Shown here: positions 5,343 to 41,451 of the stretch, piece by piece
Layout of the letters: each line of letters begins with the position of its first letter
Numbering within the stretch: position 1 is the first letter of the stretch
Assembly: GCA_001839685.1 (NCBI GenBank)
Contig: MLAK01001093.1
Span: 1 to 64,000, forward strand
Origin: Tritrichomonas foetus
Taxonomy: Eukaryota; Parabasalia; Tritrichomonadida; Tritrichomonadidae
Length of the DNA stretch: 64,000 bases
Reading direction: 5' to 3'
Program-made: the position numbers and the translations under genes
The notes under the pieces: model-generated
What the model was told of the DNA's origin: nothing
What the model saw: the letters and a program-made list of their open reading frames with translations, nothing else
Databases searched by the model: none

Positions 5343-6527
5343 ATGACGTCAACGGCAACTATCTACCGCGTCACAGAGAAAGATTGGGTCCCAGGACCTG
5401 ATAAATACCAGGTTCCCTCTGATTTTGGGAACAATGCGCGCAAATATACCATCGGGCACAGATACGGTTCCAAATCATCACGCGGGCCTGGCTATGAAAA
5501 CCTTCCAACAACAATTGGAACAGGCCATAAATATTCGCTTTCATCACGTCACCAGCAAGGCAAGCAATTCATTACACCTGCACCAGATTATCATCCACCT
5601 CCAATCGGTGTCGGCGCTCCGGCAAGTTCTTTCCACCAGAGGCTCACCCCACGAGAGAGAGGTGGAACTCCCGGACCAAACTACGCCCCAACTTTTTCAG
5701 GCGGTAAACAATGGACAATGAAAGCAAGAAGATTTATCGACGAGGAGAAACCATGCAGTCCAGGTCCAGGTAAATATGGCCCTCAGTACGAAAACGTTTT
5801 ACCCGCGCCACGAAAGATTCAAATCGGAAACGTTATAAATAGAAAAGTTGAAAATAACAATCCAGGACCAGGCCAGTATCCAATCGATCGATCTCTCATC
5901 AACCAACCGGCATCTTTTCACCAGCGAATTGACCAGAAGAAGCAAGACTGGGTTCCAGGTCCGGCCAAATATGAGCCTGAGAAACATTATCCAAAAGAAG
6001 GACCACAGTACAGCCTCAGGTCACGTATCGATACACCAAAGGATGTAATTCGCGCTCCATACCAAGCGTTAAAGTCAACCGTTGGTGATGGTCTCAAATA
6101 TTCTCTATCGTATCGACCAAAAGATCTCGCAAAACCTGTAACACCTGGACCAGCATACGTCCCGCCACCTTTCGGCTCCGATGCCACAAAGTGCTCACTC
6201 ACATCAAGAAGAGACACAAAGAAACCAGCACCAGGGCCAGGACCAGGCGCCTATGATGTGAATCAGCCAAATTCAGGAAGAAAATGGTCAATGAAAGGCA
6301 GAAACTTCTTGCCTGACAGGAAAGATGCTGGACCAGGAGTAGGAAAATATAATCCCGATTATGATAAAGTTTTACCATCTCCAAGAAGAAACCAAATCCT
6401 CGAACGGCCTAAAGAAAGAAATACAGTATCAGGACCAGGGTATTATGATCTTGGATCGACTTTCTCACCACCAAAGATTACAATTGGACAGAAGGAGAAA
6501 CTCGCTGTAAGGCCTGGCGTTGGATAA
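5343..6527 (+). CDS. Sperm-tail PG-rich repeat (SHIPPO/ODF3-like) protein
   Basis: The 394-residue protein is built from about eleven PG-rich repeats, each with a PGP-x-x-Y core: VPGPDKY, APDYHPP, TPGPNYAP, SPGPGKYGP, NPGPGQYP, VPGPAKYEP, TPGPAYVPP, PGPGAYDV, GPGVGKYNP and SGPGYYDL are readable in order. Proteins of this family (STPG/ODF3) associate with axonemal or cortical microtubules, often on their luminal side, and occur widely in flagellated protists. The repeats alternate with short basic segments such as MKARRF and MKGRNF, probably the microtubule-contacting parts. There are no membrane or enzymatic domains. It probably serves the flagella, recurrent flagellum or the axostyle-pelta microtubules of a trichomonad. 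The start at 5343 gives the first ATG of the frame. Confidence 0.88.
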   Translation: MTSTATIYRVTEKDWVPGPDKYQVPSDFGNNARKYTIGHRYGSKSSRGPGYENLPTTIGTGHKYSLSSRHQQGKQFITPAPDYHPPPIGVGAPASSFHQRLTPRERGGTPGPNYAPTFSGGKQWTMKARRFIDEEKPCSPGPGKYGPQYENVLPAPRKIQIGNVINRKVENNNPGPGQYPIDRSLINQPASFHQRIDQKKQDWVPGPAKYEPEKHYPKEGPQYSLRSRIDTPKDVIRAPYQALKSTVGDGLKYSLSYRPKDLAKPVTPGPAYVPPPFGSDATKCSLTSRRDTKKPAPGPGPGAYDVNQPNSGRKWSMKGRNFLPDRKDAGPGVGKYNPDYDKVLPSPRRNQILERPKERNTVSGPGYYDLGSTFSPPKITIGQKEKLAVRPGVG

Positions 6528-7442: not shown

Positions 7443-10400
7443 ATGTTCATCGATACTTCCAAATCAGAAGAACGAATAAACAAAATTATTAATGCAATTC
7501 AATCAGGAATCCCAGTTCTCTTAGAAGGACCAACTGGTACCGCAAAAACACGAAGTGCCAAGAAAGCATGTGAAAGATTAAAACAAAAAGAAATTACAAT
7601 TAATTTTAGTTCACAAACCACAATTGAAGATTTACTTGGGCGAATGGCAAGAAATCCAAATAAATTTGGCGGCTTTGATTATAAAAAGGGGCCATATGCA
7701 AAAGCATTTGAAAGAGGCTATTGTTTGATTTTAGATGAAATTAATTTAGCACATGAAACCGTTTTACAATCTATTGAAGCATCACTTGATTCAGGTTATT
7801 TATCATTTGATGTTCCAGGCGTTGGAACAAAGCATATCAAGATGAATCCATCCTTTCATGTGATAGCAACCCAAAATCCACTCACTGGACGATTTGCACA
7901 AAAAAGGCAATACTTATCAACCAAGTTTCTCTCTCGTTTCCAAATAATTAGTTTTTCAAATATTGATAAAGGTGAATTGTATGAAATTGCACTTGGTTTA
8001 TCCAATAATCGTATTGATCAAAATTTGATTAGAAAACTTGTTGATTTTCATTTTGATTGGCAAAAGAAAGAGCTTAAAGAAAATCAAATTCATGTTTTTA
8101 CAATTAGAGAAATTGCTGCAACAATAAAATCAATATTGAATAGAGTTAATCCATATGAAGCAATAATGCTACATTATGGTCTTCGTTATAATCAAAAAAA
8201 ATGCAGTGAAGTTATGAAAAAAATTGAAAGTTTAGGTATACCGAAATTTGAAGGAGAATCAATAAGTGAAGTACTTAAAAGATATCCTAATATTTATCCT
8301 AATCCAACAATAGATAAAGTTGTTCGAATGTCAAATGTATTATTGAATGAATTTCACCCAATTTTATTAGTTGGCCCTGATGGATGCGGAAAAACATACA
8401 TTGCTCGATTACTTGGTTCAATTTTTGGTGAAAATAATACCAATCTTTTTATTTGTAATCAAGAAATGACAATTTCTGATATAATTGGACGTTATATGCC
8501 AATAAAAAATGATAAATTTAGTTTTGAAAGTGATTCGGACACGCCTATTCGATGGATAAATGGACCAGTTATCAAAGCAATTGAAAATGGAGATGTTTTT
8601 ATTTTCGATCAAATTGATACAGCACCATCAACAATTTTGGAAAGATTGAATTCTTTATATGATGGACTAGGAACCGATGATTTTTCATTCATCATCCATG
8701 AAAATCCAGAAAAAGGAAAAGTTAAAGTCCATCCGAACTTTAGAATTATAGCAACTGCTAGTGAAAAAGGATTAAACAATCTTTCTCCTGCATTTTTAAA
8801 CAGATTTTCAATTGTTTATGTAAATGATCAATTAGATGGTATTTCATTCAAAGAAATAGCTAATTTATGCCAAATAATTTCAAAGAATTTCAGTGAAATT
8901 AAATCTATTATTAACATTTTATATAAATCTCTTCAGGACATGACAATGGCAAGGGTTGTAAAAATTATTCGGGGCTTTTTATGTTTAAAAAATCAGTTTC
9001 CGAAAGCCAATCAATCTGATATCATTACATTTATGTATAAAATGACTGATTTAAAAAGTAATTCTCAGAATACAAATGAAATGATGTCTGAAAGTTTAGC
9101 TCAAGAAATAATAAAAGTGTTCAATAATGAAAATACGGACAAAAGAATTGATTCCTTCTTTTTCAAACAAGCTTCATCAACAAGAAAAGTAATGGCAATT
9201 TTAACAGCGTGCTCATTATGTGGACAACATGTAATTTTAATAGGAAAAACCGGTTTAGGAAAAACCGCAGCAGCGATGGCATTTTCTCGAATGTCACCAT
9301 TTTCATCAGGCGGCGAAGTTATTTCATTTAATGGTGAAACACAGCTTGATGAACTTTTTGGTTTCTTTACAATTGATAATGGAAGTTTTTCTTTACAAAG
9401 TGGCCCTTTAAGTGCTTCAATGGAGAATGGACAAGTTTTCATTGCTGATGAATTGAATCTTGCCGAGCCACAAATTATTCAAAGCTTGAATGTTGCAATT
9501 GAACCAAACCGAGGGGAATCAATTATTGTTCCTGTTATTGGGTCAAATATAGAAGTAAATAATGGTTTCTTCTTCATTGGCTGCCAAAATGATATCTCAA
9601 TGTATGGCAGAAAGCCATTACCAGAATCCTTTAAAAAGAAAATACTTTGTATAGAATATCCTGATCCTTCTCATCATGATTTATTAAATTTGGTTTCCGA
9701 AATTTCAAAAGAATTCGGCATATCAAATTCAGATGCTGAAGCAACAACTCTTTTGGTTGAACGAATAAAGAACCATCCATCTTTTAAAGGAAAACCATGG
9801 TCTCTCCGAGAAGTGAGAAAACTATTTCGTCGAGTTGAAAATTCCAATAAGCAAACAGGATTAATGAATGGTCTTACAATTTATCACCATGCTGCATTTC
9901 TCATCAGATCCAAGTTTAGACAAATAGAAAATATTTCCTCAGAAATTGTTGATATGATAGGTAGTTGCTTTAAATTGATTGATATTAAAAAGAAAAAATT
10001 ATTAATGGATATTTCAGCAGATGTAACAATTGATTTGTCCAATGAAGATAAAATCATCCTTCATAAAGGAAGTACCGCAATTACTTCTTATCAAAGTATT
10101 TTACGAACAATTCCTCAAGAATTACAGTCATTTTGGCAAGTCCTTTATGAAGCTTTTATAACTCATCATTCTGAACCACTTCTTCTTGTTGGACCATCCG
10201 GCTTCAAAACTTTTATTGCGGGAATTATTTCACCAATGTCACCTGTTGTTTATTTACATAATGATTCAACAACCTCTTCATTAATTGGACAAATCGCATT
10301 ACTTGACAAATATCAAGCGAAAAATGAATTATTAGAAATTATTCATGGTTTTATATCAAGAGAAGAAAATCCTTTACTAGAAAATCAATATCGTAATATT

Positions 10401-13400
10401 AAAACTTTGCTTGAAGAAAATGAGTTAAAAAGAGTGGATATGGATGAATTTATCCAAATGCTTTTTAATTTGGTTCCTGAATCTTTTCAAGCTGTTATTA
10501 AAAATATTGGAAATAAAATTATTGAATTCGATAATTTTGACCAAAATGGGAACATGTTTTCAAATTATACCAGTGTGTTCAAACCAGGACTTGTGACCAA
10601 AGCCATTCTCAAACAAAATTCACTTATTTTGAAAAACATTGCTCAACCATCTCCTTCCGTTTTAGAACGTTTTAATGAATTACTTTCTGTCACCCCAACA
10701 TTAACTTTATTTGAAGATTCAACAAATACTTTTACTACAAAAAATAATAAAGTATTATATGACTTTAATCAAATGTTTAGAATTATTGGAATTTGTCTTC
10801 CGCACGAAAAACGAAATCTTTCTGATGCGATGCTTTCGCGACTTACTGAAATTTCTGTACCTACATACCAAACAAAAGAACTCCCTTATGTTTTTGGAAG
10901 TATTATGGAGAATGTACCAAAGAAGCTTGCCATATCATTTAAATCTATGCTGCAAACAGCATGTAATATTTTCCAGGAGTTGTTCGATATAAATATTTCA
11001 TTTGTTCAAGTTATTCAAATAACCAAATTAACTATTAAATGGGTGGAGCAGTTTCCGGAAATGGATATTTCAAAGTTATTTGGATATGCTGTTTTAAGAT
11101 GTGCTGGTGGCAATCAACTTGATTATGAGCAACGTTTGGAATTATTACAAAGAATGACAGGAACAATGATTGAGCTGCCTTCAGATTTCGTTAAAATATT
11201 TGATAGAAGTATTTTACGAAAGAATACAACAACACCAGAATTAAGCATTTCAACAGATAATTCATTAAACCAAATTGTTGTATCATCATTGACTCAGTTT
11301 TCAATTGAAACAAGTTTTCAACAATTACCAACAGCCAATCTTCTTTTTACTCCATCAATTATTGATTTAACTGATCTAATCATTTCAATGGCTTCAATTT
11401 CCCAGTCACTAATAATCGAAGGTCCAAGTGGCTGTGGTAAAAGTTCTATCATTAACTATGTTGCTAAATGTGCTGAAGTCAACGTGATTCATGTTTCTAT
11501 TTCTCAAAGCACAACAATTGAAGATTTATTTGGAAAAGTGGAGCCAAGTACTGAATCAGATTCCCTAAAGTTCGATTTCCATGAAACACAGCTTCTTCAT
11601 GCATTAAGATCAGATCGAAAAGATGCATACATTACTTATTGGATTGTAATAGAAGAACTTCATTTAGCATCAGCTGCTGTTCTTGATGCTTTAGGTCCAG
11701 TTTTTAATGCTGATACTAATTTCATTTTATTACCAAATGGTGATTATGTAACTAAAGGTAATTATTTTGCCATTGGAATCCTTTCAAAGCCCATTACACA
11801 CCAAGCAATTGTCAATACATCTGTATATTACCGTGTTGAAGATTATACATCACAAGAATTTATTGATGTTTGTAATTATATTCTTAAAACACATAACTAT
11901 CAAGATTTCTCGGAAAATTTTGATCAGAAAATCAATAATTTAATTGAAATTAATAATTCTACAAAAGAGAAAATTCCTATTACTGTCAGAGAAACTCATA
12001 AGTTCATTAAAATGATGAAACAATCTTTGAACTTGTTGAATCCATCAACAGTATTGGAAATGCTTTTCTTAGGTAGATTTAATGACCAGAAATTGCTTAA
12101 AAAGGCGAGATCAACTTTGAAATTCAAGAATTATGATAGAATCCTGGACATTTTGATTCAAAATAATGCAACAATTCTCAATTCAGGCGAAGTTAAAATT
12201 CCCATAAATTCAAGGCATTCCCGTCACCGTGAAATTAAATCATTAACAAAATCACAAAGACAATTATTCCAATTTATTTCGCTTTCAATTTTAGCCGATA
12301 TTCCATTAGTTATTCAAGGACCAACTGCATCAGGTAAAACATACTCAATTCAATTATTTGCTGATATTGTCGGTAAAAATCTTAAAGTGATTCAATTGAA
12401 TTCCGAGACGACAAGTGCATCAATTGCCGGAGTGTATCAACCTTCAAAATCTATCTCAGACAGTGAATACCAACAAATTTCTGATACAATATCTAAGTTA
12501 ATAAAATATAATGTTCTTCCTAAAGACATTTCTCACGAAATAAGGGAAAAAGATATCAAAGAATGGAATATAGGGGTATTTAGACATATCCGAGATTTCC
12601 TTAATCAAAATTTGTCTACGTTCAACATGATGACCAAACAAATTGCCACAACGTATATCACTACAGTTGATAAAATCTTACAATTTTTCAATCATCTTAT
12701 TCGAAAAGATTCAATATTTGTTGAATCACTTATTAATGGTGATTGGCTTCTTCTTGATGGAATTGAGTCAGCCCCATCTGATCTTTTTGACCGACTTTTC
12801 ACCTTACTCGATGATGAACCAACTCTTAATTTATATGAACGAGGAAAAGGGTACTTATACTCCAAGAATTCAACAAACTCCAAGTGCAAAATTCATAATG
12901 ATTTTCGATTATTTATGACTTACAATCCGGAAAATATAAAATCCACAAACAAGATTTCTCCAGCATTTTTAAGTAGATGCAACATGTTTTCTCTTTCTTC
13001 TATTGATAGTTCGATTATTAATTCAAGTTTGGCTATTTCTGGCTTGTTAGAATCAGTTAAAATCGAAGATATAAGCGATTATATTCAAAGCTGTGTAAAA
13101 ATAGCAGAAATTCATAATACTGCCATATCAATGTCTAACAATAATGTTTTAAATAATATAACAGGAAGATCAATTATCTATTTATGTCGCTCTCTGGTAT
13201 TTTTAAATCAAATTTCTCCATCAAAAATCATTTCTAGAAATATTCTTGTTAATGCAGCTTCAAATCATTATAATCAGATTCTACACCCAAATTTAATTGA
13301 AAAAATTATGAAAACAAGGACCAAAAGAGAGACAATCAAAAGAATTAATGATATCAGATTAACAATCTCAAAACATGGATTTTTAATGACTCAAATGATT

Positions 13401-16400
13401 GATAACTTTTCTGCTGATATTCATACCCATGATGATATGCCAAACGAGTTTCCATTTCGTGATTTCGTTTATCATCTTCCAAAATTACAATTGAAAGATG
13501 TTCATGAAGTTGTTGAAAGGTTTGAAAATATGGCAAATATCATTAATTCAAAGATGAACAAAATTTCAACAAAACAATTGGCACATTTGGCATCAATTAA
13601 TACACTCCTAAATATTTTAAAGAATGTTCGACAAATATTTCAAGCCGTTATGAGTGATGCGAGATATCACTCATTGACAATTGATTCAGAACAATTATAT
13701 GCTCAAAAACAGTTTACCAGTATTATTAATCATGTTAAATGTTTGTTCCTATTGGTTCAAAACAAATTTTACGTTCCATTTATTCCCTATATACTTGTAT
13801 CAGATGATTTTGGCCAAAGTTATGCAAACCTCTTAAAAATGATTGATAATAATGCACCATTTTACTCAATAATTAAAGAAATTATCAAATATGGCGATTT
13901 TAAACACATAATTTTTGAAGAAGAAGCAAACTTCATGAAATTTGTAAATTCGATAATTCGATTTAAAAAAGAACAATTTATTATTCACTTTATAACAGCA
14001 AAAAAGAAGATTAAAGGTAATTACATTCAATTTATTCTCAATGAATCAGGCAATGCGATCTTACAAATTCATATAAAAGTCAATGGCAGTGAGATATTCA
14101 GCCAAATTTGCAAGACTAATTTTGGATTTTCTCTTCTTTCACTTGTGAATTTACTAGTAAGTGTATATGAAAAATATATTGGAAATCAAAAAACATCTCA
14201 AATACAGCCTCTTATCGAAAATGTAAACCAAGAAAATAATATTATTAATTTCAATCTTGATAATTTTTGGATCGATAATCAAGATTTAACTCATATGAAC
14301 AAAATATGTGGTTCATTATTCCGAGAAAGTGGAATTTACCAATTTTTCTATTCCGGTATTGATCGATCACTTTTTAATATATCTTATTTTTCATTGAATT
14401 CTAATGATTATAATGGTTTTATCAAATGGATGTTTTGGCTAAATGATTTTATTAATGCGTTCTCAAATATTATTTCTTCATCAAATAGAAAAGAAATCTT
14501 CTTCAACAAAGTACAACAAATAATTTCAAGTGAAAAATCATCAGAAAATTTAGATAGAATTTTAACTATCCTTTGTGCATTCCCCATTCAGACTATTCAA
14601 TTTGAATCATCAAAATATTCAACAATGGAAATTCAAGATCTCATTAACCAAATCAAAGATATTGTTTTTGATGCCAATGAAAAACTAAATGAAGCTAAAT
14701 TAAACTTATTCAAGAGTAAGAATCAAAGAGACATTGAAAGAATGTTTAATTATCTAAAACGAGAAATTTCCACAATTATCAGTCAAAATCCCGAAATGGC
14801 AAAACCTTATCAATATTTACTTAATCTGATGGACATAGTTGAACGAAATCAAACAAAATATACCTTCATACAAAAGATTAAAGAATCTCTTTCCCAAACA
14901 AAAAATACAGGAAACAAACAAAATATTTTTTCCTGGCCAACACAAAAAGATATAGCAGATTATGATCAACCATTAGATTACTTTATACTTAAAACATTAA
15001 TTGATTACACTGATGCAGTTCAACAAATTAATGAAATTGAAAGAAATCCATCTTGGCTAATAATATGTGATCTCGACAAACCAGAAACTGTTCTTAAAGA
15101 TTATCTCTTAAATGAAAGAGTCTCTCAGAATATAATAAATATTCTTCGAAGAAATACACGAGCAAATCTAATAAAATCATTATGTAGTAATAACTATCAA
15201 AATGTAAGTATGAATCATATTCGTGCATTTTTGGATGGCTTCAATGATAGATTTAAGAATATTCCTGATAGTTGGATTCCAATTATTCAAACATTAGCAT
15301 CAAAATATCCTGCAGATTATACTATTCTACTTCCAAAATATGAGCCATCTGATTTAATTGCTTTACTAATAAACCAACTTGATGGAAGTGCTGGTCCATC
15401 GATTCTTCAACAATTTAATGATTCTACACATTTATCAGAATTCAAAAACCTATATTCTACGAAATATACAAAATTTGATCAGGTGGCTATTGTTTTACAG
15501 CAAACTTTTATTAATATTTCTTCGAAATATATTCAAGAAAAGAAAAGTAAAATTACATTTGATGAAGTTTACTCACAAATATCTAAAGATTCCAATGTTC
15601 CTATCGATATTCAAGAGATTGGAAAATGCATCTCATCAATTTCAAAAATTGGATCGCAAATTAAAGATCAAAGTGGAAGTTTTAATTATGATGATATTCA
15701 AGCAATTGATTCTCATGATTATATTGACCGAAATCCTATCTCTGGATTTTACCTTTTATTACATCCAAGTGTTAAAGATTATTTGATGCCAATCAATAAC
15801 TTCCGCGGAAATTATCGTTTTCCATTGGCATTGTTTGGCTTTAGAATATTGAGTAGATCAAGTTGCATTCAAATTCAATTACCAATGCATTTTCCTACAG
15901 AAAAAATATCTTCCGAAGTTTCTAAATTAATTGTTCAAAGATTATCTGAGAACAAACATCGTAAAAGCTTACCATTCCATAATATGATTCCATTTTTGTT
16001 GGAAAATCCATCACATTACTTCCAAACAAATCATATCAAACATCTCAGATCAACTTTCATTAAAATATTGAGCTCAGTCCATGATAATATTTTATTTGAA
16101 ATGATTCAAAAATATATTATTGATTTATTACCTAAGTTCTGTGATATTTTATTAACTAATCAATGGGAAACTTTTCTTGAAGGAAATATTGATTCAAAAT
16201 ATAAAACAATACTTTCTTTGATGAAAAATCCCTGGGAATTTATCACACAAGAACTCTTGAAAGATTTCAATGAAGAAAAGGACACTATTAATGAACATCT
16301 CAAATTATTCGTGACTTTTGCTTGTAAAGGAATTAATGAAAATTGTTCAAATGAGAGGATCCAAGAAATAAAGAAATGTATCGAAAACGATGAAGATAAA

Positions 16401-19400
16401 TTCAAACAGCAGGCTAATGAAGAACTAAAAAGGCTTGAATCTTACTCGATTGAGCATGAAGAAGATCCAGAAATCAAAATTTTGAATAAATCATGGAAAA
16501 TGTATAATTCATTTTTATTAAATGCTATCAACAAGCTTCATTTTTATAGTGAAAACTTCGAAACTTCAAATCTTCCAAACGAAGGCTTTTATTCAGACTT
16601 TATTCAACATGTTACAGATGCCAAGACTTTTCTTCCAACAACAACAACAGTTCCAATTGTTGTTGTTTATCCAAAAGAGAAAAATAAACCTATTTCTATT
16701 ACAATTCGTGAAACAAACAAATCTAGTAAAACAATAAAAAGCCAGATTAAAGATAAGACTATTTTGAGATTACCTTCTGGCAGCTTTAGTATTGATGGTG
16801 ATAAAAATACGAACTGGGAAACATTAGAAATCAGATATGATCCACAATTCCAACCAATAAAACAATTCAAAATGCGCGATATGATTGAACATTATAAGGA
16901 ATTTGTTCGATCATATCAAGCCTTCAAAGAAAAGACTCAAGGAGAATCTTTAAATTCTTTGACATTAAATACTGGCTCAACAACTGTAACATTTAATGAA
17001 GATGATTTCCTAACATTTTCAAAGAATATTTCCGAAATAAAGACAAAATGGATCACAACATTTTCTAAATCAATTCCTTATAATCTTTTAAATAATGTTT
17101 TTGATGATCTTCTAAAAGACATTAATTTAATAAGAACCTATTTTCCACCACGATATAAATCTGACACAATTTTACAACCAACTGAAACACAGCAAAAATT
17201 ACAAATATTAACGAGCTTTGCAAATATTATGGAGATCAAGATAAAAGCTCTTAAAGAGGTAATTACTGACTCCTTTATCAAAAAAGACACATTATTTAAC
17301 GATAAAAATTCAGAATATCACTCAATTAAAGCTGCATCAGATTGTCTCAAAACAGATCTTATTCCAAAAGAACCTCAAATTAAGCCTAGCTATTCCAAAA
17401 TGTTTCTGAAAATGAAAACTACATCAGAATTATTATCACCGTCAATTATTACACCGGGTGGAAATGGTACTCCATATGTAAATATTAACGAAATTATCAT
17501 TGAAGTTGGTCCACTAATGAGTGGTATTCATACAACTCCTTTACAAATCCGACTTGTTAATTTTGTCACTGATGAAATAAATTGTGTGTTCATTCCAGAA
17601 GATCAAAGTCTTCCTATTCCAATTATTGAAAAATTTGTTGGTTACATTCTCATTACCATTCCAGTGGAATCACTTCAGCTTCACCTTAACACAAAAAGTG
17701 ATATTCAATTCAAAGGTGAACTCTTGATCTCTTTAGTAAGTGAGAAAAAGCAAACTAAACCGTTTGCCAAATTACCTTATTCTATTATTCTACATTTCAT
17801 ACCACCAACATTGTTCTTAAAAATCGAGGAACACCAATTTGCTGTAAAAGAAGGAAAAGCACAAATTGTAGAATTTTTCTGTACTGAAGAAACATCAATT
17901 AAAATCAGTACTCTGAACAAGCTCCAAAATTCGCCTCTTCACCTTTCTCTTCAAATATCTGAACAAAATGATAATACAGCTCGTACACCAACAGTTTTAT
18001 GCAATATTAGTAACGCAACAATTACGATGCCAAATTATGTTCCTGTATCTGATGGGATTACATCAAATAATGAAAATCATTTCTCAACTAATTTAAATAT
18101 TGTATTTTCTCCATCAATTACTAATTCAATCCAATTTAAATCACAAATTGAGAAATCACCTTTATATGTTGCGATGTTCTGTGATTTCAAAAAAGATTTT
18201 GTCGAAGATAATGCGGTTATCAACTTTGGAATGGCTGAAAGATCAGTTTTCTTCTTTATAGGATGGCTTAATCAAACAAATAAGCATATTATACCCAAAG
18301 TAGATATCATGACCTTTAATCAGAACGAAGTATCTGTTGTCTATAAACCTGGTAATATAAACTTATATAAACGACATGAACTTAAAGGTCAATCATATAT
18401 TTTTACAATTAAAGCTTTACGACAAGGTTTGAAAAGAACAAATAAAATGACAGGACAAATGACCGTTCAGTTTGACAAATTCTTCACCAAACAAATTAAT
18501 TTTGAATTAAAGTATCAACCTATTTTTATTCAGAATGATTACACAAACCATGTGAATATTCGTATTAATAATCATATCCCTCATTCAATTTATAATGGAA
18601 ACGATTTCCAACCATGTAACACACCAAGTGAAATTGCAACAGCTAGGTCATATCAATACCAATTAATTGTTTCTCCTTTCTCATTTTCTTATTATAGCTC
18701 TTATGGAGATCATTTCAGAGTTTTCTATAATAAAAATGGTGCACTTCGAATTGTTTTAACAAATGGATTGAATACACGAAGATTTTTGGATATTATTGCA
18801 GTAAATGATTACGGTGAAATTGTTTTACTGAAGAATTCTTCAGTACATCAAGATAATAACTCTCTTGTAAAGTTATTTGCTATTCATAAAAATTTGATAA
18901 ACTTTTTCTTCCCACTAGTAGGTAGATGTAAACATCATCGTCAGCATTTCCAAGTACGTCCATATGAAAATAATATTTCTTCATTTGCACACTTTTTTGC
19001 ACACTTTTTATCAAAAGATGAATCCCAAAAAAGAGGAATTTTATATGCCAAGAATTTAAAACAAATATTTCGAACTTCAACAAATGAAGCTAATTTTGCA
19101 TATTTGATTGATTTCCTTGGAGAGACTTTTTCCAGTTTTGATTATGAAAATATGTTATATCAAATTGGCCACCTTTTACATGTTGATTTGGTTAGTACAT
19201 TTCAATTTTATGCATCTCAACAAAACCCTGAATTTATTGAAGCTCAGTTCATGTGCTTTGTTCAGGTGTTATATGATTATATATGCAAACTATCGGACTA
19301 TATCGAATCTAATGATGGCTATATCTTTCTCCCGTTAACCCAGAAACAAATACAAGATGAACAAAAACAACAATTAAAGGTCGCCAAATTTGATGAAGAA

Positions 19401-22400
19401 AGTATTCAAGAATCAAAATATTTCCGATACTTTACAGACCAATTAGAAGCTCATCAAGCCAGAGAGGAAAAAAATATTCAGAAATTGCGTCAAGAGGATT
19501 ACAAAGTAACCAATATTATCAAATGGACAGCTGATAATGGTTTTGTTGGTTCTGATCAAAGGGAAGTAGATGCAATGGAAATAACATGGAAAGGTAATAA
19601 CAATGAAAGCCAAGCAACAAAAAAGATGAAAATCACAGAATCTATTACATTTTCGACAGATATTCAAATCTATACCACCAGCTCTAACAATTCACTCTTT
19701 AGTATTTTTAAATATTTTGATTCTTTACTCTTGGCAACATATCAATTTACTTTTTCATTATATTCGTCAATCCAATCCCAAAATCTCAAAAGACTAGAAA
19801 GTGATTCATATTATTTGAATTATTTGGCTACTGTTTATAATTGGGCAATCTCTGACACATCTAGAAAATATTCTGTTTTCACAAATTTTATTGATTCTTA
19901 TATTCCAGCATTTATCTCAATGGTTAAAAGACTTTATAAAGCTGGATTTACAGAATTCAAAGGTGTTCTTGAGAATGCATCACAATCCCAATATAAAGAT
20001 ACAAATGATATTGATTTCATGATTGCTCCAAGACAGGGATCATTGGCAATACCATCATTAAACTGGGACCAACCTGGTTTGAAAACTGTTCATAATAGAA
20101 ACGAAATTATTCAAAACGAAAAAGAATTTCTTAATCTAAATATATCAGAAAAAATTGAAGAAGATGATTATAATGATGACTTATTTGAAGAAGAAGAAGA
20201 AGAGGAGGAAGAAGAAGAAGAAGAAAGAGATAATTATTCTGTTAATCAAATTTTCCGAACACGAACAAGAAGAAATCGACAAAGGGGATTACTTTCTCAT
20301 ATTGATGCTCATGGTGATAAAGATCGTAAACAATTAGCTCTTATTAAAAAAGAAGCGAACAGGAAACATGCTACTTCTCGTCAAATTGTTGAAGATGATA
20401 AGTCAAACAATCTTTCAAACCAAGAATTAATCAATAGCTTAGTTGATCAAATTATTTATCATACAGAAAATTCATTAGAATGTCAAATCAATGCTAATAA
20501 TCCAATTCCTCAGAATTATTCTGTATCTAATAATAAAGAAATGAGAATTCAACAATTCATGAAGGAATCAGAATGCTTATCTGGTCAAATAATATCAAAA
20601 GCTTTATTCAGCGAAACTGTTCTCGATGCAATTGATGATTCATTCGCATCAATTTTAATTGATAGTTCATCATCAATGGATGATAAACAAAAGGCAAATT
20701 TACTTTTAATATTAATTGCATATGCCAATGCACTTAACTCGCTTAGAATTCCATATTCTATCATCATTTTTTGCGATCAAGAGTATCAATTCATTCTTAA
20801 AAAGCTTGAAGAAAAGCATGAAGAAATTCATTTCCAACGACTTCTTGATATTATGGGTGTTAGAAGACGTGTTTCTTTGATGTATGATGCAATTACATTT
20901 GCAAAAGAAAATATCAAACATTCTACAAGGAAACATCATAATATTTTTGTTCTCACTGATGGCCTTTGCAATACACTTCATCTTTCTGATCAATGGAAAG
21001 AAAGATGTCTTAATGACGGAAACACTGCGGTTTTATTCTTCTTTTTGGACATACTCAAAATGAATGAGAATGCACAAGCAGTTCGAGATATATGGGATAA
21101 ATTCAATTCTGATATTTCTGATGCGACTTCTCCAGCTATTGCATTTTATGAAGAGCCAGAAGTGATATTGAACAATCTATCATCATCATTTGCAAATAAT
21201 TTCATAAATATTTTATCAAAGTTTCATGAGACCAATATTAATGAACTGGTTCAAGCTGTGCCTTATGAAAAAATTACTAAAGTTGGCCATAATGTATTTG
21301 ATCAAGGAATAAAATATTTGGTTACAGAAATAGAGAAAACCCATGATTGCTTCATTTGTATTGATAATGATATCGAATTGGATAATTCAATTGAGTTTGA
21401 ACCTGCAATTATGAATATAGAGCCATTCTGTATCAATATTTCCAGAGTTAGTGATAAACAAAATACATTTATGAAGTATTTAATGCTTGAAACAGCTAAA
21501 ATGTTCGAAAAATCATCAATTCAAGAATTGAATTCTTACATGTTTTCACCAAACAAAGCGAGCCAATTTTCACCTTCTTCTAATGGGACAATTTTCTATT
21601 TCCCAGGACTTATTAAGTTTTTGTTAACACATGGACAGGATACCAAAATATTCCTTGAAAAGAACGCAGGTTTAATAATGAGTTATTCAATTTTTATTGT
21701 AATTGATTGTACAGTCTCATGTTTCAATGATCAAACTTATTCACATTCAATCCAATCTATTATCGGATTACTTAAATCTTTATCATATATTGACTTGCCA
21801 TCATTAACTATTATTGTAACTACTAAAAATGGTCCAATCATTCTCTGCAGTGAAACATCAACTTTAACAGCCCTCTCAGATAATTCCCCGCTCTGGATTG
21901 CTTTATTCTATTATTTCATGAACCCACATAATGAATCACACTTAATATCTGCTGTATCTTCTGTACTATCAATGCGTATGCAACAAAAGACTGTTGCTGC
22001 AACATGCTTCATATTCAGCGATGGGTGCTATGGAAAGAAAACGAGACATATAATTGCTGCATTAACAAGCAGTATTGAAGTTTATAAATCGACTATAATA
22101 ACAATTGGAATTGGTGAAACTCCAGTGAATGCTAAAAGTCTCTCAAAGCGATATTTATGGGTTCCTAATCCATCATATCTGATCAAATGCATCACATCTT
22201 TGTTTGGAAATGAATTTCCATTCCAGCAAAGCGAAATTTATAGTTCATATTCATTAGTTCCACCACAGAAAGATTCAATTTCCCATCTCGCAAGCCTTAT
22301 TAATCAACCAGATAAACTTGTCTTCGAAGAACTTTATAAAGAGCTGAATAAAGTCATTAGAAGATTCAGAGTCTATCAGGATTTCTATAACGCTGAAGTT

Positions 22401-24044
22401 GTAAAAGGTTCAGGTTATGGAATTACAGTGAATCCAGAAGGCGATGGATATGATCTCGGTAAGGATAAGCGTTATGATGGACAAAGTGTTTTATTCTGTA
22501 TGTTTTGGGATGCTTGCATTAGTGATACAGAATCACAATATATTACTGTAAATGTGTTAGTAAATGGTGTTGGAAATGATGGAGTTTCTGTTGTCAAAGC
22601 ACTCAATGATTATGGCATGACAGTGAAAATTGTACAAGATTATGAAGAAGGAATTAAATCAATGCGAAGTGGTGAATATTCACAAGTTCACATTATTTGT
22701 GGACGATGCGATGGTAAATTACCAAGTGGAGGAAATGCAAAATTGGTTGGACAATTTGTTGATTGCTGCATTTTATATTGGAAACGTGGGGGTGGATTAG
22801 TTTGGTGGACTGATAATGATCCACTTGATTATGAATTGAATCTATTTTTAGAAAGAGCCGAATTTCATAAACATGGAAAATCTAAATTAAGAATTGTTGG
22901 AAATCACTATGGTGATGGAACATTAAAGCCAGGAATAATGGATGGAAGACATTATGGATACTTCAATAATGAACGAAAAATTGCTTATGATGGAATTGAA
23001 AGAGCATCTTTCAATTATAACCTCTTTTCAATGTATGAGGGTATTACTGTTGCTTTTGCAGCAGATAGAAATGAAATTGCGCCATTTAAGCCATTTATTT
23101 ATTCATCAGATGGTGGAATATCAGCTTTGTATTATGCATCAAGCATCGAATGCGATGAAGGCGATATTTACATTGATTGTGGTTTCACCAAATTATTCAT
23201 GGAACTTAAAAAGGATGGTGTTTATCGATACATTAGAAATATTGCTGCATGGATGCTTTCAATTGAAAAGAAAGACTTAAAGTATGGATCAATGATTGAT
23301 CCAATGAAATTCCGTCCAAGTAAATTTGATTTCCAAATTAAGCATTATGTTGATTGGGAATTTAAACGTTACAATACGAACAAACTAGTTGATGTTGTAT
23401 TTTTGATTGATGGAACAGGATCAATGAGGTTCTACATTGATTCAGTTCGAGAAACATGCAATTATATATCTGACTACTGCAAGAAGAATTATAAGAATAA
23501 TCAATTCCGCTTTGGTTCAATCATTTATCGAGATAAAGCAGTTTCTTATAAAGATAAAAATGAATTCCTTAAATTATCACCAAAAATCACTGAGCTTGAA
23601 GCATTTCTTAAACAAATTAAATGTGGTGGCGGCGGCGGAGATGGCCCTGAAGATTGGTTATCTGGGTATGAAGATATGCTCAAGCTTAATTGGGGTATTG
23701 GCTCAAAAGTAGTCATTCATATTGCTGATGCACCTGGACATGGAACAATGTTCTCAGGCAAAGAAAGTGAGATGGATGATGAACATGATGAAAAATTCCC
23801 AGAAGTTGTGAAACAAGCTGCTGAATTAGGATTAATGTTCCATTGTGTATGTGGTAAGAAATACGCTTTGAGGAGCTTCAAGAAAACTGGTGAAATATAT
23901 AAGGGAGCAGGTGGAAGATATTATCACATTGTCGAAACAAATGATGGCCTTGGTGATGACCAAGAAAATATAGATGAACTCAAATCGACGATCAGAGAAG
24001 TTATCAAAAATTCCATTGATGCTGCTGTTGCTGTTCCAGTTTAA
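7443..24044 (+). CDS. Giant midasin-like hexa-AAA+ protein with VWA and GATase-like domains
   Basis: This 5,533-residue protein begins directly with six AAA+ modules of the midasin/dynein/MoxR type. Walker A sites are GPTGTAKT (29-36), GPDGCGKT (311-318), GKTGLGKT (601-608), a shortened GPSGFKT (917-923), GPSGCGKS (1327-1334) and GPTASGKT (1626-1633). Walker B acidic pairs are intact in modules 1 (D98-E99) and 3 (D669-E670); module 2 reads DQ, module 4 has no acidic pair, module 5 reads EE and module 6 DG. A long helical then beta-rich linker follows to about 4237, then an acidic run (4238-4263), a VWA domain with MIDAS DSSSS (from D4407), a weaker VWA-like region (near D4755), a Rossmann-like domain resembling class I GATase/DJ-1 folds (about 5000-5280), and a terminal VWA (DGTGSM from D5323). 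AAA ring, linker, acidic run and VWA match the order in midasin, the ribosome-assembly ATPase, but the midasin N-terminal domain is missing and the last 800 or so residues are extra. It could be a divergent midasin or a distinct AAA-VWA remodeller; I favour the latter. Confidence 0.8.
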   Translation: MFIDTSKSEERINKIINAIQSGIPVLLEGPTGTAKTRSAKKACERLKQKEITINFSSQTTIEDLLGRMARNPNKFGGFDYKKGPYAKAFERGYCLILDEINLAHETVLQSIEASLDSGYLSFDVPGVGTKHIKMNPSFHVIATQNPLTGRFAQKRQYLSTKFLSRFQIISFSNIDKGELYEIALGLSNNRIDQNLIRKLVDFHFDWQKKELKENQIHVFTIREIAATIKSILNRVNPYEAIMLHYGLRYNQKKCSEVMKKIESLGIPKFEGESISEVLKRYPNIYPNPTIDKVVRMSNVLLNEFHPILLVGPDGCGKTYIARLLGSIFGENNTNLFICNQEMTISDIIGRYMPIKNDKFSFESDSDTPIRWINGPVIKAIENGDVFIFDQIDTAPSTILERLNSLYDGLGTDDFSFIIHENPEKGKVKVHPNFRIIATASEKGLNNLSPAFLNRFSIVYVNDQLDGISFKEIANLCQIISKNFSEIKSIINILYKSLQDMTMARVVKIIRGFLCLKNQFPKANQSDIITFMYKMTDLKSNSQNTNEMMSESLAQEIIKVFNNENTDKRIDSFFFKQASSTRKVMAILTACSLCGQHVILIGKTGLGKTAAAMAFSRMSPFSSGGEVISFNGETQLDELFGFFTIDNGSFSLQSGPLSASMENGQVFIADELNLAEPQIIQSLNVAIEPNRGESIIVPVIGSNIEVNNGFFFIGCQNDISMYGRKPLPESFKKKILCIEYPDPSHHDLLNLVSEISKEFGISNSDAEATTLLVERIKNHPSFKGKPWSLREVRKLFRRVENSNKQTGLMNGLTIYHHAAFLIRSKFRQIENISSEIVDMIGSCFKLIDIKKKKLLMDISADVTIDLSNEDKIILHKGSTAITSYQSILRTIPQELQSFWQVLYEAFITHHSEPLLLVGPSGFKTFIAGIISPMSPVVYLHNDSTTSSLIGQIALLDKYQAKNELLEIIHGFISREENPLLENQYRNIKTLLEENELKRVDMDEFIQMLFNLVPESFQAVIKNIGNKIIEFDNFDQNGNMFSNYTSVFKPGLVTKAILKQNSLILKNIAQPSPSVLERFNELLSVTPTLTLFEDSTNTFTTKNNKVLYDFNQMFRIIGICLPHEKRNLSDAMLSRLTEISVPTYQTKELPYVFGSIMENVPKKLAISFKSMLQTACNIFQELFDINISFVQVIQITKLTIKWVEQFPEMDISKLFGYAVLRCAGGNQLDYEQRLELLQRMTGTMIELPSDFVKIFDRSILRKNTTTPELSISTDNSLNQIVVSSLTQFSIETSFQQLPTANLLFTPSIIDLTDLIISMASISQSLIIEGPSGCGKSSIINYVAKCAEVNVIHVSISQSTTIEDLFGKVEPSTESDSLKFDFHETQLLHALRSDRKDAYITYWIVIEELHLASAAVLDALGPVFNADTNFILLPNGDYVTKGNYFAIGILSKPITHQAIVNTSVYYRVEDYTSQEFIDVCNYILKTHNYQDFSENFDQKINNLIEINNSTKEKIPITVRETHKFIKMMKQSLNLLNPSTVLEMLFLGRFNDQKLLKKARSTLKFKNYDRILDILIQNNATILNSGEVKIPINSRHSRHREIKSLTKSQRQLFQFISLSILADIPLVIQGPTASGKTYSIQLFADIVGKNLKVIQLNSETTSASIAGVYQPSKSISDSEYQQISDTISKLIKYNVLPKDISHEIREKDIKEWNIGVFRHIRDFLNQNLSTFNMMTKQIATTYITTVDKILQFFNHLIRKDSIFVESLINGDWLLLDGIESAPSDLFDRLFTLLDDEPTLNLYERGKGYLYSKNSTNSKCKIHNDFRLFMTYNPENIKSTNKISPAFLSRCNMFSLSSIDSSIINSSLAISGLLESVKIEDISDYIQSCVKIAEIHNTAISMSNNNVLNNITGRSIIYLCRSLVFLNQISPSKIISRNILVNAASNHYNQILHPNLIEKIMKTRTKRETIKRINDIRLTISKHGFLMTQMIDNFSADIHTHDDMPNEFPFRDFVYHLPKLQLKDVHEVVERFENMANIINSKMNKISTKQLAHLASINTLLNILKNVRQIFQAVMSDARYHSLTIDSEQLYAQKQFTSIINHVKCLFLLVQNKFYVPFIPYILVSDDFGQSYANLLKMIDNNAPFYSIIKEIIKYGDFKHIIFEEEANFMKFVNSIIRFKKEQFIIHFITAKKKIKGNYIQFILNESGNAILQIHIKVNGSEIFSQICKTNFGFSLLSLVNLLVSVYEKYIGNQKTSQIQPLIENVNQENNIINFNLDNFWIDNQDLTHMNKICGSLFRESGIYQFFYSGIDRSLFNISYFSLNSNDYNGFIKWMFWLNDFINAFSNIISSSNRKEIFFNKVQQIISSEKSSENLDRILTILCAFPIQTIQFESSKYSTMEIQDLINQIKDIVFDANEKLNEAKLNLFKSKNQRDIERMFNYLKREISTIISQNPEMAKPYQYLLNLMDIVERNQTKYTFIQKIKESLSQTKNTGNKQNIFSWPTQKDIADYDQPLDYFILKTLIDYTDAVQQINEIERNPSWLIICDLDKPETVLKDYLLNERVSQNIINILRRNTRANLIKSLCSNNYQNVSMNHIRAFLDGFNDRFKNIPDSWIPIIQTLASKYPADYTILLPKYEPSDLIALLINQLDGSAGPSILQQFNDSTHLSEFKNLYSTKYTKFDQVAIVLQQTFINISSKYIQEKKSKITFDEVYSQISKDSNVPIDIQEIGKCISSISKIGSQIKDQSGSFNYDDIQAIDSHDYIDRNPISGFYLLLHPSVKDYLMPINNFRGNYRFPLALFGFRILSRSSCIQIQLPMHFPTEKISSEVSKLIVQRLSENKHRKSLPFHNMIPFLLENPSHYFQTNHIKHLRSTFIKILSSVHDNILFEMIQKYIIDLLPKFCDILLTNQWETFLEGNIDSKYKTILSLMKNPWEFITQELLKDFNEEKDTINEHLKLFVTFACKGINENCSNERIQEIKKCIENDEDKFKQQANEELKRLESYSIEHEEDPEIKILNKSWKMYNSFLLNAINKLHFYSENFETSNLPNEGFYSDFIQHVTDAKTFLPTTTTVPIVVVYPKEKNKPISITIRETNKSSKTIKSQIKDKTILRLPSGSFSIDGDKNTNWETLEIRYDPQFQPIKQFKMRDMIEHYKEFVRSYQAFKEKTQGESLNSLTLNTGSTTVTFNEDDFLTFSKNISEIKTKWITTFSKSIPYNLLNNVFDDLLKDINLIRTYFPPRYKSDTILQPTETQQKLQILTSFANIMEIKIKALKEVITDSFIKKDTLFNDKNSEYHSIKAASDCLKTDLIPKEPQIKPSYSKMFLKMKTTSELLSPSIITPGGNGTPYVNINEIIIEVGPLMSGIHTTPLQIRLVNFVTDEINCVFIPEDQSLPIPIIEKFVGYILITIPVESLQLHLNTKSDIQFKGELLISLVSEKKQTKPFAKLPYSIILHFIPPTLFLKIEEHQFAVKEGKAQIVEFFCTEETSIKISTLNKLQNSPLHLSLQISEQNDNTARTPTVLCNISNATITMPNYVPVSDGITSNNENHFSTNLNIVFSPSITNSIQFKSQIEKSPLYVAMFCDFKKDFVEDNAVINFGMAERSVFFFIGWLNQTNKHIIPKVDIMTFNQNEVSVVYKPGNINLYKRHELKGQSYIFTIKALRQGLKRTNKMTGQMTVQFDKFFTKQINFELKYQPIFIQNDYTNHVNIRINNHIPHSIYNGNDFQPCNTPSEIATARSYQYQLIVSPFSFSYYSSYGDHFRVFYNKNGALRIVLTNGLNTRRFLDIIAVNDYGEIVLLKNSSVHQDNNSLVKLFAIHKNLINFFFPLVGRCKHHRQHFQVRPYENNISSFAHFFAHFLSKDESQKRGILYAKNLKQIFRTSTNEANFAYLIDFLGETFSSFDYENMLYQIGHLLHVDLVSTFQFYASQQNPEFIEAQFMCFVQVLYDYICKLSDYIESNDGYIFLPLTQKQIQDEQKQQLKVAKFDEESIQESKYFRYFTDQLEAHQAREEKNIQKLRQEDYKVTNIIKWTADNGFVGSDQREVDAMEITWKGNNNESQATKKMKITESITFSTDIQIYTTSSNNSLFSIFKYFDSLLLATYQFTFSLYSSIQSQNLKRLESDSYYLNYLATVYNWAISDTSRKYSVFTNFIDSYIPAFISMVKRLYKAGFTEFKGVLENASQSQYKDTNDIDFMIAPRQGSLAIPSLNWDQPGLKTVHNRNEIIQNEKEFLNLNISEKIEEDDYNDDLFEEEEEEEEEEEEERDNYSVNQIFRTRTRRNRQRGLLSHIDAHGDKDRKQLALIKKEANRKHATSRQIVEDDKSNNLSNQELINSLVDQIIYHTENSLECQINANNPIPQNYSVSNNKEMRIQQFMKESECLSGQIISKALFSETVLDAIDDSFASILIDSSSSMDDKQKANLLLILIAYANALNSLRIPYSIIIFCDQEYQFILKKLEEKHEEIHFQRLLDIMGVRRRVSLMYDAITFAKENIKHSTRKHHNIFVLTDGLCNTLHLSDQWKERCLNDGNTAVLFFFLDILKMNENAQAVRDIWDKFNSDISDATSPAIAFYEEPEVILNNLSSSFANNFINILSKFHETNINELVQAVPYEKITKVGHNVFDQGIKYLVTEIEKTHDCFICIDNDIELDNSIEFEPAIMNIEPFCINISRVSDKQNTFMKYLMLETAKMFEKSSIQELNSYMFSPNKASQFSPSSNGTIFYFPGLIKFLLTHGQDTKIFLEKNAGLIMSYSIFIVIDCTVSCFNDQTYSHSIQSIIGLLKSLSYIDLPSLTIIVTTKNGPIILCSETSTLTALSDNSPLWIALFYYFMNPHNESHLISAVSSVLSMRMQQKTVAATCFIFSDGCYGKKTRHIIAALTSSIEVYKSTIITIGIGETPVNAKSLSKRYLWVPNPSYLIKCITSLFGNEFPFQQSEIYSSYSLVPPQKDSISHLASLINQPDKLVFEELYKELNKVIRRFRVYQDFYNAEVVKGSGYGITVNPEGDGYDLGKDKRYDGQSVLFCMFWDACISDTESQYITVNVLVNGVGNDGVSVVKALNDYGMTVKIVQDYEEGIKSMRSGEYSQVHIICGRCDGKLPSGGNAKLVGQFVDCCILYWKRGGGLVWWTDNDPLDYELNLFLERAEFHKHGKSKLRIVGNHYGDGTLKPGIMDGRHYGYFNNERKIAYDGIERASFNYNLFSMYEGITVAFAADRNEIAPFKPFIYSSDGGISALYYASSIECDEGDIYIDCGFTKLFMELKKDGVYRYIRNIAAWMLSIEKKDLKYGSMIDPMKFRPSKFDFQIKHYVDWEFKRYNTNKLVDVVFLIDGTGSMRFYIDSVRETCNYISDYCKKNYKNNQFRFGSIIYRDKAVSYKDKNEFLKLSPKITELEAFLKQIKCGGGGGDGPEDWLSGYEDMLKLNWGIGSKVVIHIADAPGHGTMFSGKESEMDDEHDEKFPEVVKQAAELGLMFHCVCGKKYALRSFKKTGEIYKGAGGRYYHIVETNDGLGDDQENIDELKSTIREVIKNSIDAAVAVPV

Positions 24045-41379: not shown

Positions 41380-41451
41380 GTCCCAGTAGTATAATGGTTA
41401 GAATAGATCCTTGACACGGATCAGACAGCGGTTCGATTCCGCTCTGGGACA
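41380..41451 (+). tRNA. tRNA with anticodon GAC (Val by anticodon)
   Basis: The 72-nt cloverleaf has a perfect 7-bp acceptor stem (GTCCCAG/CTGGGAC) with discriminator A. The D arm contains TAGTATAATGG (A box) with one A-A mismatch. The anticodon stem is GATCC/GGATC with loop TTGACAC, giving anticodon GAC at 41413-41415. The variable loop is short. The T arm is AGCGG/CCGCT around TTCGATT, giving B box GGTTCGATTCC. A run of seven T immediately after (41452-41458) is a Pol III terminator. No intron or encoded CCA is present. The anticodon reads GTC/GTT (valine), yet the body, especially the A box and D loop, resembles eukaryotic tRNA-Asp, so identity should be checked. Confidence 0.9.

What the first reader, a model, noticed from the sequence alone, without database searches (positions are those of the whole stretch)
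7443..24044. Giant AAA+/VWA fusion outside the usual midasin layout
One uninterrupted frame encodes six AAA+ modules starting at residue 1, a long linker, an acidic run, two VWA-like regions, a class-I-GATase-like domain and a final VWA domain. AAA ring plus acidic run plus MIDAS-bearing VWA is the plan of midasin, but the midasin N-terminal domain is missing and about 800 extra residues follow. MoxR-type AAA ATPases commonly work with separate VWA proteins in prokaryotes; here everything is on one chain. It may be an undescribed protein-remodelling machine.
Basis: partly seen in the sequence, partly recalled or inferred. Interest (0 to 1): 0.78.

Follow-up and report, generated by a model that had tools for sequence, protein, structure and literature searches.

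The report
Giant midasin-like AAA+ mechanoenzyme family
A protist gene encodes a 5,533-residue molecular machine related to the ribosome-assembly factor midasin but distinct from it, with a different set of predicted fuel-burning sites and an extra binding tail; similar giants occur in other microbes.

Summary
In detail: one uninterrupted frame of 5,533 codons (7443-24044, +), six AAA+ modules from residue 1, a ~2,500-residue linker, and a C-terminal VWA1-VWA2-GATase-like-VWA3 block. The genome (Tritrichomonas foetus, inferred) has a separate canonical midasin (C400), so this is not its midasin. Three paralogues in the genome and 51 distinct relatives elsewhere make it a real family. It is a midasin relative: through a bridging clade the ring is collinear with midasin, and VWA2, not VWA1, is the midasin-type MIDAS domain. 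[quoted passage not shown] The acidic run is local to this copy. Most likely it is a single-chain AAA+ mechanoenzyme pulling a MIDAS-bound, non-ribosomal protein ligand. The substrate is unknown and nothing was tested at the bench. Searches of the held literature showed no description of it.

The parts
7443..24044 (+). whole ORF, 5533 aa, one uninterrupted frame
7443..8222 (+). AAA1, catalytic pattern intact (GPTGTAKT, LILDE)
   Evidence: Walker B Asp-Glu in 49 of 49 family members
8280..9002 (+). AAA2, Walker A intact, Walker B Glu replaced by Gln (FIFDQ): probably binds but does not hydrolyse
   Evidence: Asp-Glu in 1 of 50
9150..9902 (+). AAA3, catalytic pattern intact (GKTGLGKT, FIADE)
   Evidence: Asp-Glu in 51 of 51
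10095..11012 (+). AAA4, degenerate (GPSGFKT one residue short; Walker B LILKN) with long insert
   Evidence: Asp-Glu in 0 of 51
11316..12062 (+). AAA5, GPSGCGKS / IVIEE (Asp replaced by Glu), catalytic state uncertain
   Evidence: Asp-Glu in 7 of 51, Glu-Glu in 10
12210..13202 (+). AAA6, Walker A intact, Walker B Glu replaced by Gly (LLLDG), long insert
   Evidence: Asp-Glu in 0 of 51
13203..20609 (+). linker, weakly conserved, no Pfam family over its cut-off
20187..20225 (+). run of 13 Glu, not conserved in the family
20610..21359 (+). VWA1, MIDAS motif DSSSS here, degenerate in most relatives
21384..22142 (+). VWA2, midasin-type MIDAS domain with upstream extension, DCTVS / SDG
22233..23327 (+). 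GATase-like (GIFT/ThuA-type) domain, core about residues 5012-5289, no conserved nucleophile Cys at the elbow
23343..24008 (+). VWA3, integrin-beta-I-like VWA, MIDAS DGTGS intact

Best explanation
This is a member of an undescribed family of giant single-chain AAA+ mechanoenzymes related to midasin (Mdn1/Rea1). The six modules fold into one ring. ATP hydrolysis in odd modules (AAA1 and AAA3, in fungal-type relatives also AAA5), timed by even modules that lack the catalytic Glu, moves the linker and pulls on a protein ligand held through the metal site of VWA2, as midasin pulls assembly factors off pre-60S particles. The GIFT-like pseudo-enzyme and VWA3 add a second recognition surface, probably holding the other partner of the complex being remodelled. 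Shown: domain content, collinearity with midasin through a bridging clade, midasin-type MIDAS domain, conserved site pattern, separate midasin in the genome. Inferred: ring assembly, hydrolysis, force production, docking of VWA2 on the ring. Unknown: substrate and cell function.
For: The AAA part matches Mdn1/Rea1 best in the PDB (five distinct midasin sequences, best E 1.6e-76; next an uncharacterised chain and NorQ/CbbQ, E about 1e-6 and weaker). Separate midasin C400; the ring search of the genome finds the four giants and C400, 12 candidates scored. Ring profiles share odd/even alternation with midasin; a bridging clade of 14 proteins matches midasin AAA1-6 in register (centred score 399, next 168) and the family in register (985, next -8). 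VWA2 aligns with the midasin MIDAS domain over 202 columns, hhalign 95.9%, E 5.8e-9; 0 of 60 column shuffles reach it, and for the upstream extension alone 0 of 200 do. VWA2 and VWA3 keep the metal-site residues checked in 50 of 54 and 30 of 30. Walker B Asp-Glu: AAA1 49 of 49, AAA3 51 of 51; in 37 midasins AAA2-5 each 37 of 37.
Against: Direct family-to-midasin ring register is unresolved (159 for register 0, 197 for a two-module shift); the in-register claim rests on the bridging clade, whose modules 3 and 5 were located partly with family and midasin profiles. Only 2 of 14 bridging proteins show VWA2 and VWA3, and neither of these shows the GATase-like domain. hhalign on the upstream extension alone gives a probability of only 21%. 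VWA1 and VWA3 also match the midasin MIDAS profile at 76% and 79%. No expression, ATPase or structure data; the linker was not modelled. BLAST identity to C400 in the ring is about 24%.
Confidence: 0.68

Rival explanations
1. It is simply a divergent midasin that works on pre-60S ribosomes.
For: Ring and VWA2 are midasin-related.
Against: The genome has a canonical midasin, matched to Mdn1/Rea1 through ring and C-terminus. Catalytic pattern, missing N-terminal domain, missing large AAA2 insert and extra GIFT-like/VWA3 domains differ. Four paralogues in one genome.
Confidence: 0.08
2. It is a sensor or switch of intracellular conflict or signalling, comparable to the prokaryotic MoxR-vWA ternary systems, with the AAA ring setting a threshold.
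For: Kinase families in the precomputed Pfam lists of 6 of the 120 listed hits (P0017, P0019, P0022, P0023, P0024, P0031), shown to be N-terminal in P0024; a kinase-like frame upstream of the C388 copy; bpMoxR profile match; several paralogues. MoxR-vWA conflict systems: PMC7159879, passages.
Against: No effector or kinase domain reported in the Pfam lists seen for the window protein (25 of 41 families shown for residues 1-1900). Closest solved relatives are midasins, and a scan of prokaryotic genomes confirmed no relative of the C-terminal block.
Confidence: 0.15
3. It is a dynein-type motor.
For: Dynein-related AAA_5, AAA_6 and AAA_7 matches; a BLAST match to the T. foetus dynein C492 (51.6 bits). 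Strong AAA1 with a role for AAA3 also recalls dynein (PMC7311170, passages).
Against: C400 midasin scores 188 bits in the same BLAST. Family HMMs give one 24-bit module match at E<1e-5 on C492 and none on C541, both confirmed as dyneins by Pfam (stalk in both). Only about 100 residues lie between AAA4 and AAA5 here, too few for a dynein stalk (recalled).
Confidence: 0.03
4. Open-frame artefact, pseudogene or misassembly.
For: One draft contig; no transcript seen.
Against: Three paralogues on other contigs (C388 diverged in VWA3) and a relative from elsewhere aligned almost end to end at 46% identity (P0001).
Confidence: 0.02

Closest known systems
Midasin (Mdn1/Rea1)
   Same: Six AAA modules in one chain with odd/even alternation, long linker, midasin-type MIDAS VWA
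   Different: No N-terminal domain; Walker B catalytic residues in AAA1 and AAA3, not AAA2-5; no large AAA2 insert; extra VWA1, GIFT-like domain and VWA3; no D/E-rich region
Dynein heavy chain
   Same: Single-chain six-AAA ring
   Different: Weaker sequence match than to midasin; little room for a stalk between AAA4 and AAA5; has VWA domains
RNF213
   Same: Giant single-chain six-AAA ring with its own catalytic pattern (AAA3 and AAA4 competent; PMC7311170 passages)
   Different: RNF213 carries an E3 module; its AAA1 lacks both Walker motifs, while AAA1 here keeps them. No sequence comparison with RNF213 was run
MoxR-VWA pairs (NorQ/NorD, RavA/ViaA)
   Same: AAA ring working with a MIDAS VWA (PMC13036017 passages); NorQ and CbbQ chains are among the next best PDB matches
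   Different: Separate chains and homo-hexamers there (PMC13036017 passages and recall)
IFT52 GIFT domain and ThuA/class I GATase fold
   Different: No conserved Cys at the predicted elbow; sits in a AAA/VWA giant

Membership tests
Midasin (Mdn1/Rea1) | Six AAA modules on one chain, in midasin order | tested here: met
   Six modules. Order: through the bridging clade; the direct comparison alone is inconclusive
Midasin (Mdn1/Rea1) | N-terminal domain before AAA1 | tested here: not met
   AAA1 begins at residue 1-2; in C400 the first AAA match begins at residue 233
Midasin (Mdn1/Rea1) | Walker B Asp-Glu in AAA2-AAA5 | tested here: not met
   Window: AAA2 Asp-Gln, AAA4 Lys-Asn, AAA5 Glu-Glu, AAA3 and AAA1 intact; family counts. 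Midasins 37 of 37 for AAA2-5 and PMC6920918 passages
Midasin (Mdn1/Rea1) | Large helix-2 insert in AAA2 (also AAA4, AAA6) | tested here: not met
   Walker A-B spacing medians, family against midasin: AAA2 69/164, AAA4 135/112, AAA6 134/146: kept in AAA4 and AAA6, absent in AAA2 as a rule (range 59-218)
Midasin (Mdn1/Rea1) | D/E-rich region before MIDAS | tested here: not met
   0 of 54 with a 60-residue window over 50% acidic; the window reaches 0.42, C400 0.50, so the contrast with C400 is small
Midasin (Mdn1/Rea1) | MIDAS VWA with upstream extension | tested here: met
   VWA2:
Midasin (Mdn1/Rea1) | MIDAS domain is the C-terminus | tested here: not met
   about 630 residues follow VWA2
Midasin (Mdn1/Rea1) | Pre-60S remodelling | not testable with these tools
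   needs bench work
Dynein heavy chain | Dynein ring profiles | tested here: inconclusive
   Family HMMs give one 24-bit match on C492, none on C541 at E<1e-5; BLAST 51.6 bits on C492; dynein-named Pfam models AAA_6 and AAA_7 do match the window.
Dynein heavy chain | Microtubule-binding stalk between AAA4 and AAA5 | tested here: inconclusive
   PF12777 is found in both T. foetus dyneins and is not among the 25 of 41 families shown for residues 1-1900 of the window; about 100 residues lie between AAA4 and AAA5
Class I glutamine amidotransferase | GATase fold | tested here: met
Class I glutamine amidotransferase | Catalytic Cys at the nucleophile elbow | tested here: not met
   Elbow column variable (Ala 19, Cys 14, Thr 12, others 7 of 52; Thr in the window), then Asp/Glu in 52 of 52; position assigned from the predicted strand, not from a superposition

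The most novel reading that the evidence does not exclude
A further eukaryotic class of single-chain six-AAA machines beside dynein, midasin and RNF213, older than its present patchy distribution, in which active (odd) and inactive (even) modules alternate so that the ring fires as three paired units; one branch with the GIFT-VWA3 tail, found in named organisms only in anaerobic animal-associated microbes of three unrelated groups, was passed between them by gene transfer.
Probability: 0.3. Interest if true: 0.8.

Novelty: new variant of a known kind. Interest (0 to 1): 0.6.

Why it matters
Few single-chain AAA hexamers are known (recalled), and which modules burn ATP is central to how they make force. 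A midasin relative with a different, odd-module catalytic set and a second intact MIDAS domain gives a natural experiment on that question. The bridging proteins, at least one of which databases call midasin or dynein (P0056), suggest that the class is wider than annotated.

Tried and rejected
A circular shift of the ring relative to midasin was suggested by direct module scores and rejected after the bridging-clade comparison. A stand-alone version of the C-terminal block was sought: none of 7276 word-sharing candidates reached E 0.001. Prokaryotic relatives of that block were sought: 120 pattern matches, none confirmed. PDB by sequence with the C-terminal block gave nothing significant (none; integrin beta-8 at E 0.32). 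No Pfam family was reported for the GATase-like domain or VWA2 at E up to 5. A structure search with the whole C-terminal model was filled by VWA3, so the GATase-like domain was folded alone; the Rea1 MIDAS structure was not among the rows shown, which excludes nothing. A dynein module comparison was dropped. One search lists 120 of 537 hits, and these searches see only proteins that share short words and have 0.55-1.75 times the query length, so distribution statements are lower bounds. Rows dropped before counts: C167 and C500 duplicate P0002 and P0004; the first count of Walker sites (AAA1 52 of 52, AAA3 54 of 54) included P0014, whose AAA3 and AAA5 profiles hit the same stretch, and the bridging proteins P0062 and P0074; the recount without them is. 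P0062 and P0074 remain in the 57 and are also among the 14 bridging proteins; P0090, a near copy of P0087, was left out of the 14. The midasin VWA profile used 31 of 37 midasins; an earlier one used 10. VWA3 counts use only the 30 members above 45 bits, so diverged or undetected VWA3 copies are not in them. Supports for the bridging clade were not printed; the tree is rooted at the midpoint.

Full report
What is there. The frame 7443-24044 (+) is open for 5,533 codons. The window is the start of contig C702 in a 63.7 Mb genome. Two paralogues in it have the lengths and ends of proteins named Tritrichomonas foetus TRFO_17377 and TRFO_31156, on contigs of the same lengths. AAA_5 matches six stretches.

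Not the midasin of this genome. C400 encodes a 4,086-residue protein that matches Mdn1/Rea1 through the ring and the C-terminus (E 0 and 2.4e-69). The giant has three paralogues: C167 (5,566 aa), C500 (5,758 aa) and C388 (6,082 aa); searches with the C-terminal block, the VWA2 region and the ring find these, and for the ring also C400. C388 has a diverged VWA3 (68 bits). Two other AAA giants, C492 and C541, are dyneins.

A family. Two database searches and family HMMs give 57 of 132 sequences with two or more C-terminal modules over 40 bits; 55 are distinct, 51 of them outside this genome. Named members are T. foetus, T. vaginalis (P0018, P0021), Piromyces (P0064, P0080) and Blastocystis (P0014). 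Tritrichomonas musculus (P0024) and Neocallimastix (P0066) have the ring but no C-terminal block in the sequence held. That these named organisms are anaerobic and animal-associated is recalled. Conservation peaks at the six AAA modules and in the C-terminal block; the linker is weakly conserved.

Relation to midasin. The ring's best solved relative is Mdn1/Rea1. Direct profile comparison shows odd-odd and even-even matching but leaves the register open (159 against 197). A bridging clade (14 proteins used, among them Hondaea and Rotaria; grouped in the tree) matches both midasin and the family in register. VWA2 matches the midasin MIDAS domain together with its upstream extension, beyond all of 60 shuffles for the whole domain and all of 200 for the extension. 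VWA1 and VWA3 match it less well (76% and 79% against 95.9%).

Catalytic sites. Leaving out the ambiguous Blastocystis protein and two bridging proteins, Walker B Asp-Glu is kept in AAA1 (49 of 49) and AAA3 (51 of 51), and in AAA2 in 1 of 50 (P0080), AAA4 0 of 51, AAA5 7 of 51 (P0063, P0064, P0065, P0073, P0080, P0081, P0085, all in the branch with the named fungi) and AAA6 0 of 51. The window has Asp-Gln in AAA2, Lys-Asn in AAA4, Glu-Glu in AAA5 and Asp-Gly in AAA6. In the bridging clade AAA1, AAA3 and AAA5 are Asp-Glu in 14 of 14 each and AAA2 ends in Asn in 14 of 14. In 37 midasins AAA2-AAA5 are Asp-Glu in all, AAA1 mostly Glu-Asp and AAA6 Asn-ended, in line with published mutational work (PMC6920918, passages). 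RNF213 and dynein differ again (PMC7311170, passages).

How it may work. In Rea1, ring hydrolysis drives the linker, which contacts the ring-docked MIDAS domain and can transmit force to its ligand (PMC11603028, passages). I infer the same here with VWA2, without the AAA2 insert that autoinhibits Rea1, and with a second intact MIDAS domain (VWA3). The substrate is unknown.

What is in print. Searches of the held library listed no description of this family. Of the listed papers I looked for midasin in PMC7203096 (no occurrence in the part held) and PMC2837639 (three passages, dynein-midasin kinship only). Most subscription journals and preprints are not held, so this is weak evidence of absence.

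Noticed in passing
L034 (C388:13522-14130) and L009: A kinase-like frame (HQN at the place of HRD, by eye) overlaps, in another frame, the start of the C388 giant ORF; P0024 carries an N-terminal kinase on the same chain.
   Followed up: partly
P0055, P0056, P0058, P0061, P0062, P0067, P0068, P0072, P0074, P0075, P0077, P0079, P0082, P0087: A bridging clade of giant AAA proteins with Walker B Asp-Glu in AAA1, AAA3 and AAA5; VWA2 and VWA3 detected in P0062 and P0074 only. P0056 (Hondaea) is named dynein and midasin in databases.
   Followed up: partly
P0014, P0018, P0021, P0024, P0064, P0066, P0080: Named relatives with the family-type ring are from parabasalids, Blastocystis and anaerobic fungi (lifestyles recalled); gene transfer or biased sampling.
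   Followed up: no
C853, C142, C351, C223, C423, C282 in G000: Short ORFs matching the VWA3 part of the query.
   Followed up: no
window 5343-6527: SHIPPO-repeat (sperm-tail PG-rich) protein just upstream.
   Followed up: no
window 41380-41451: tRNA-Val(gac).
   Followed up: no
window 36725-41104: 1,459-aa ORF with only a weak PAS match.
   Followed up: no
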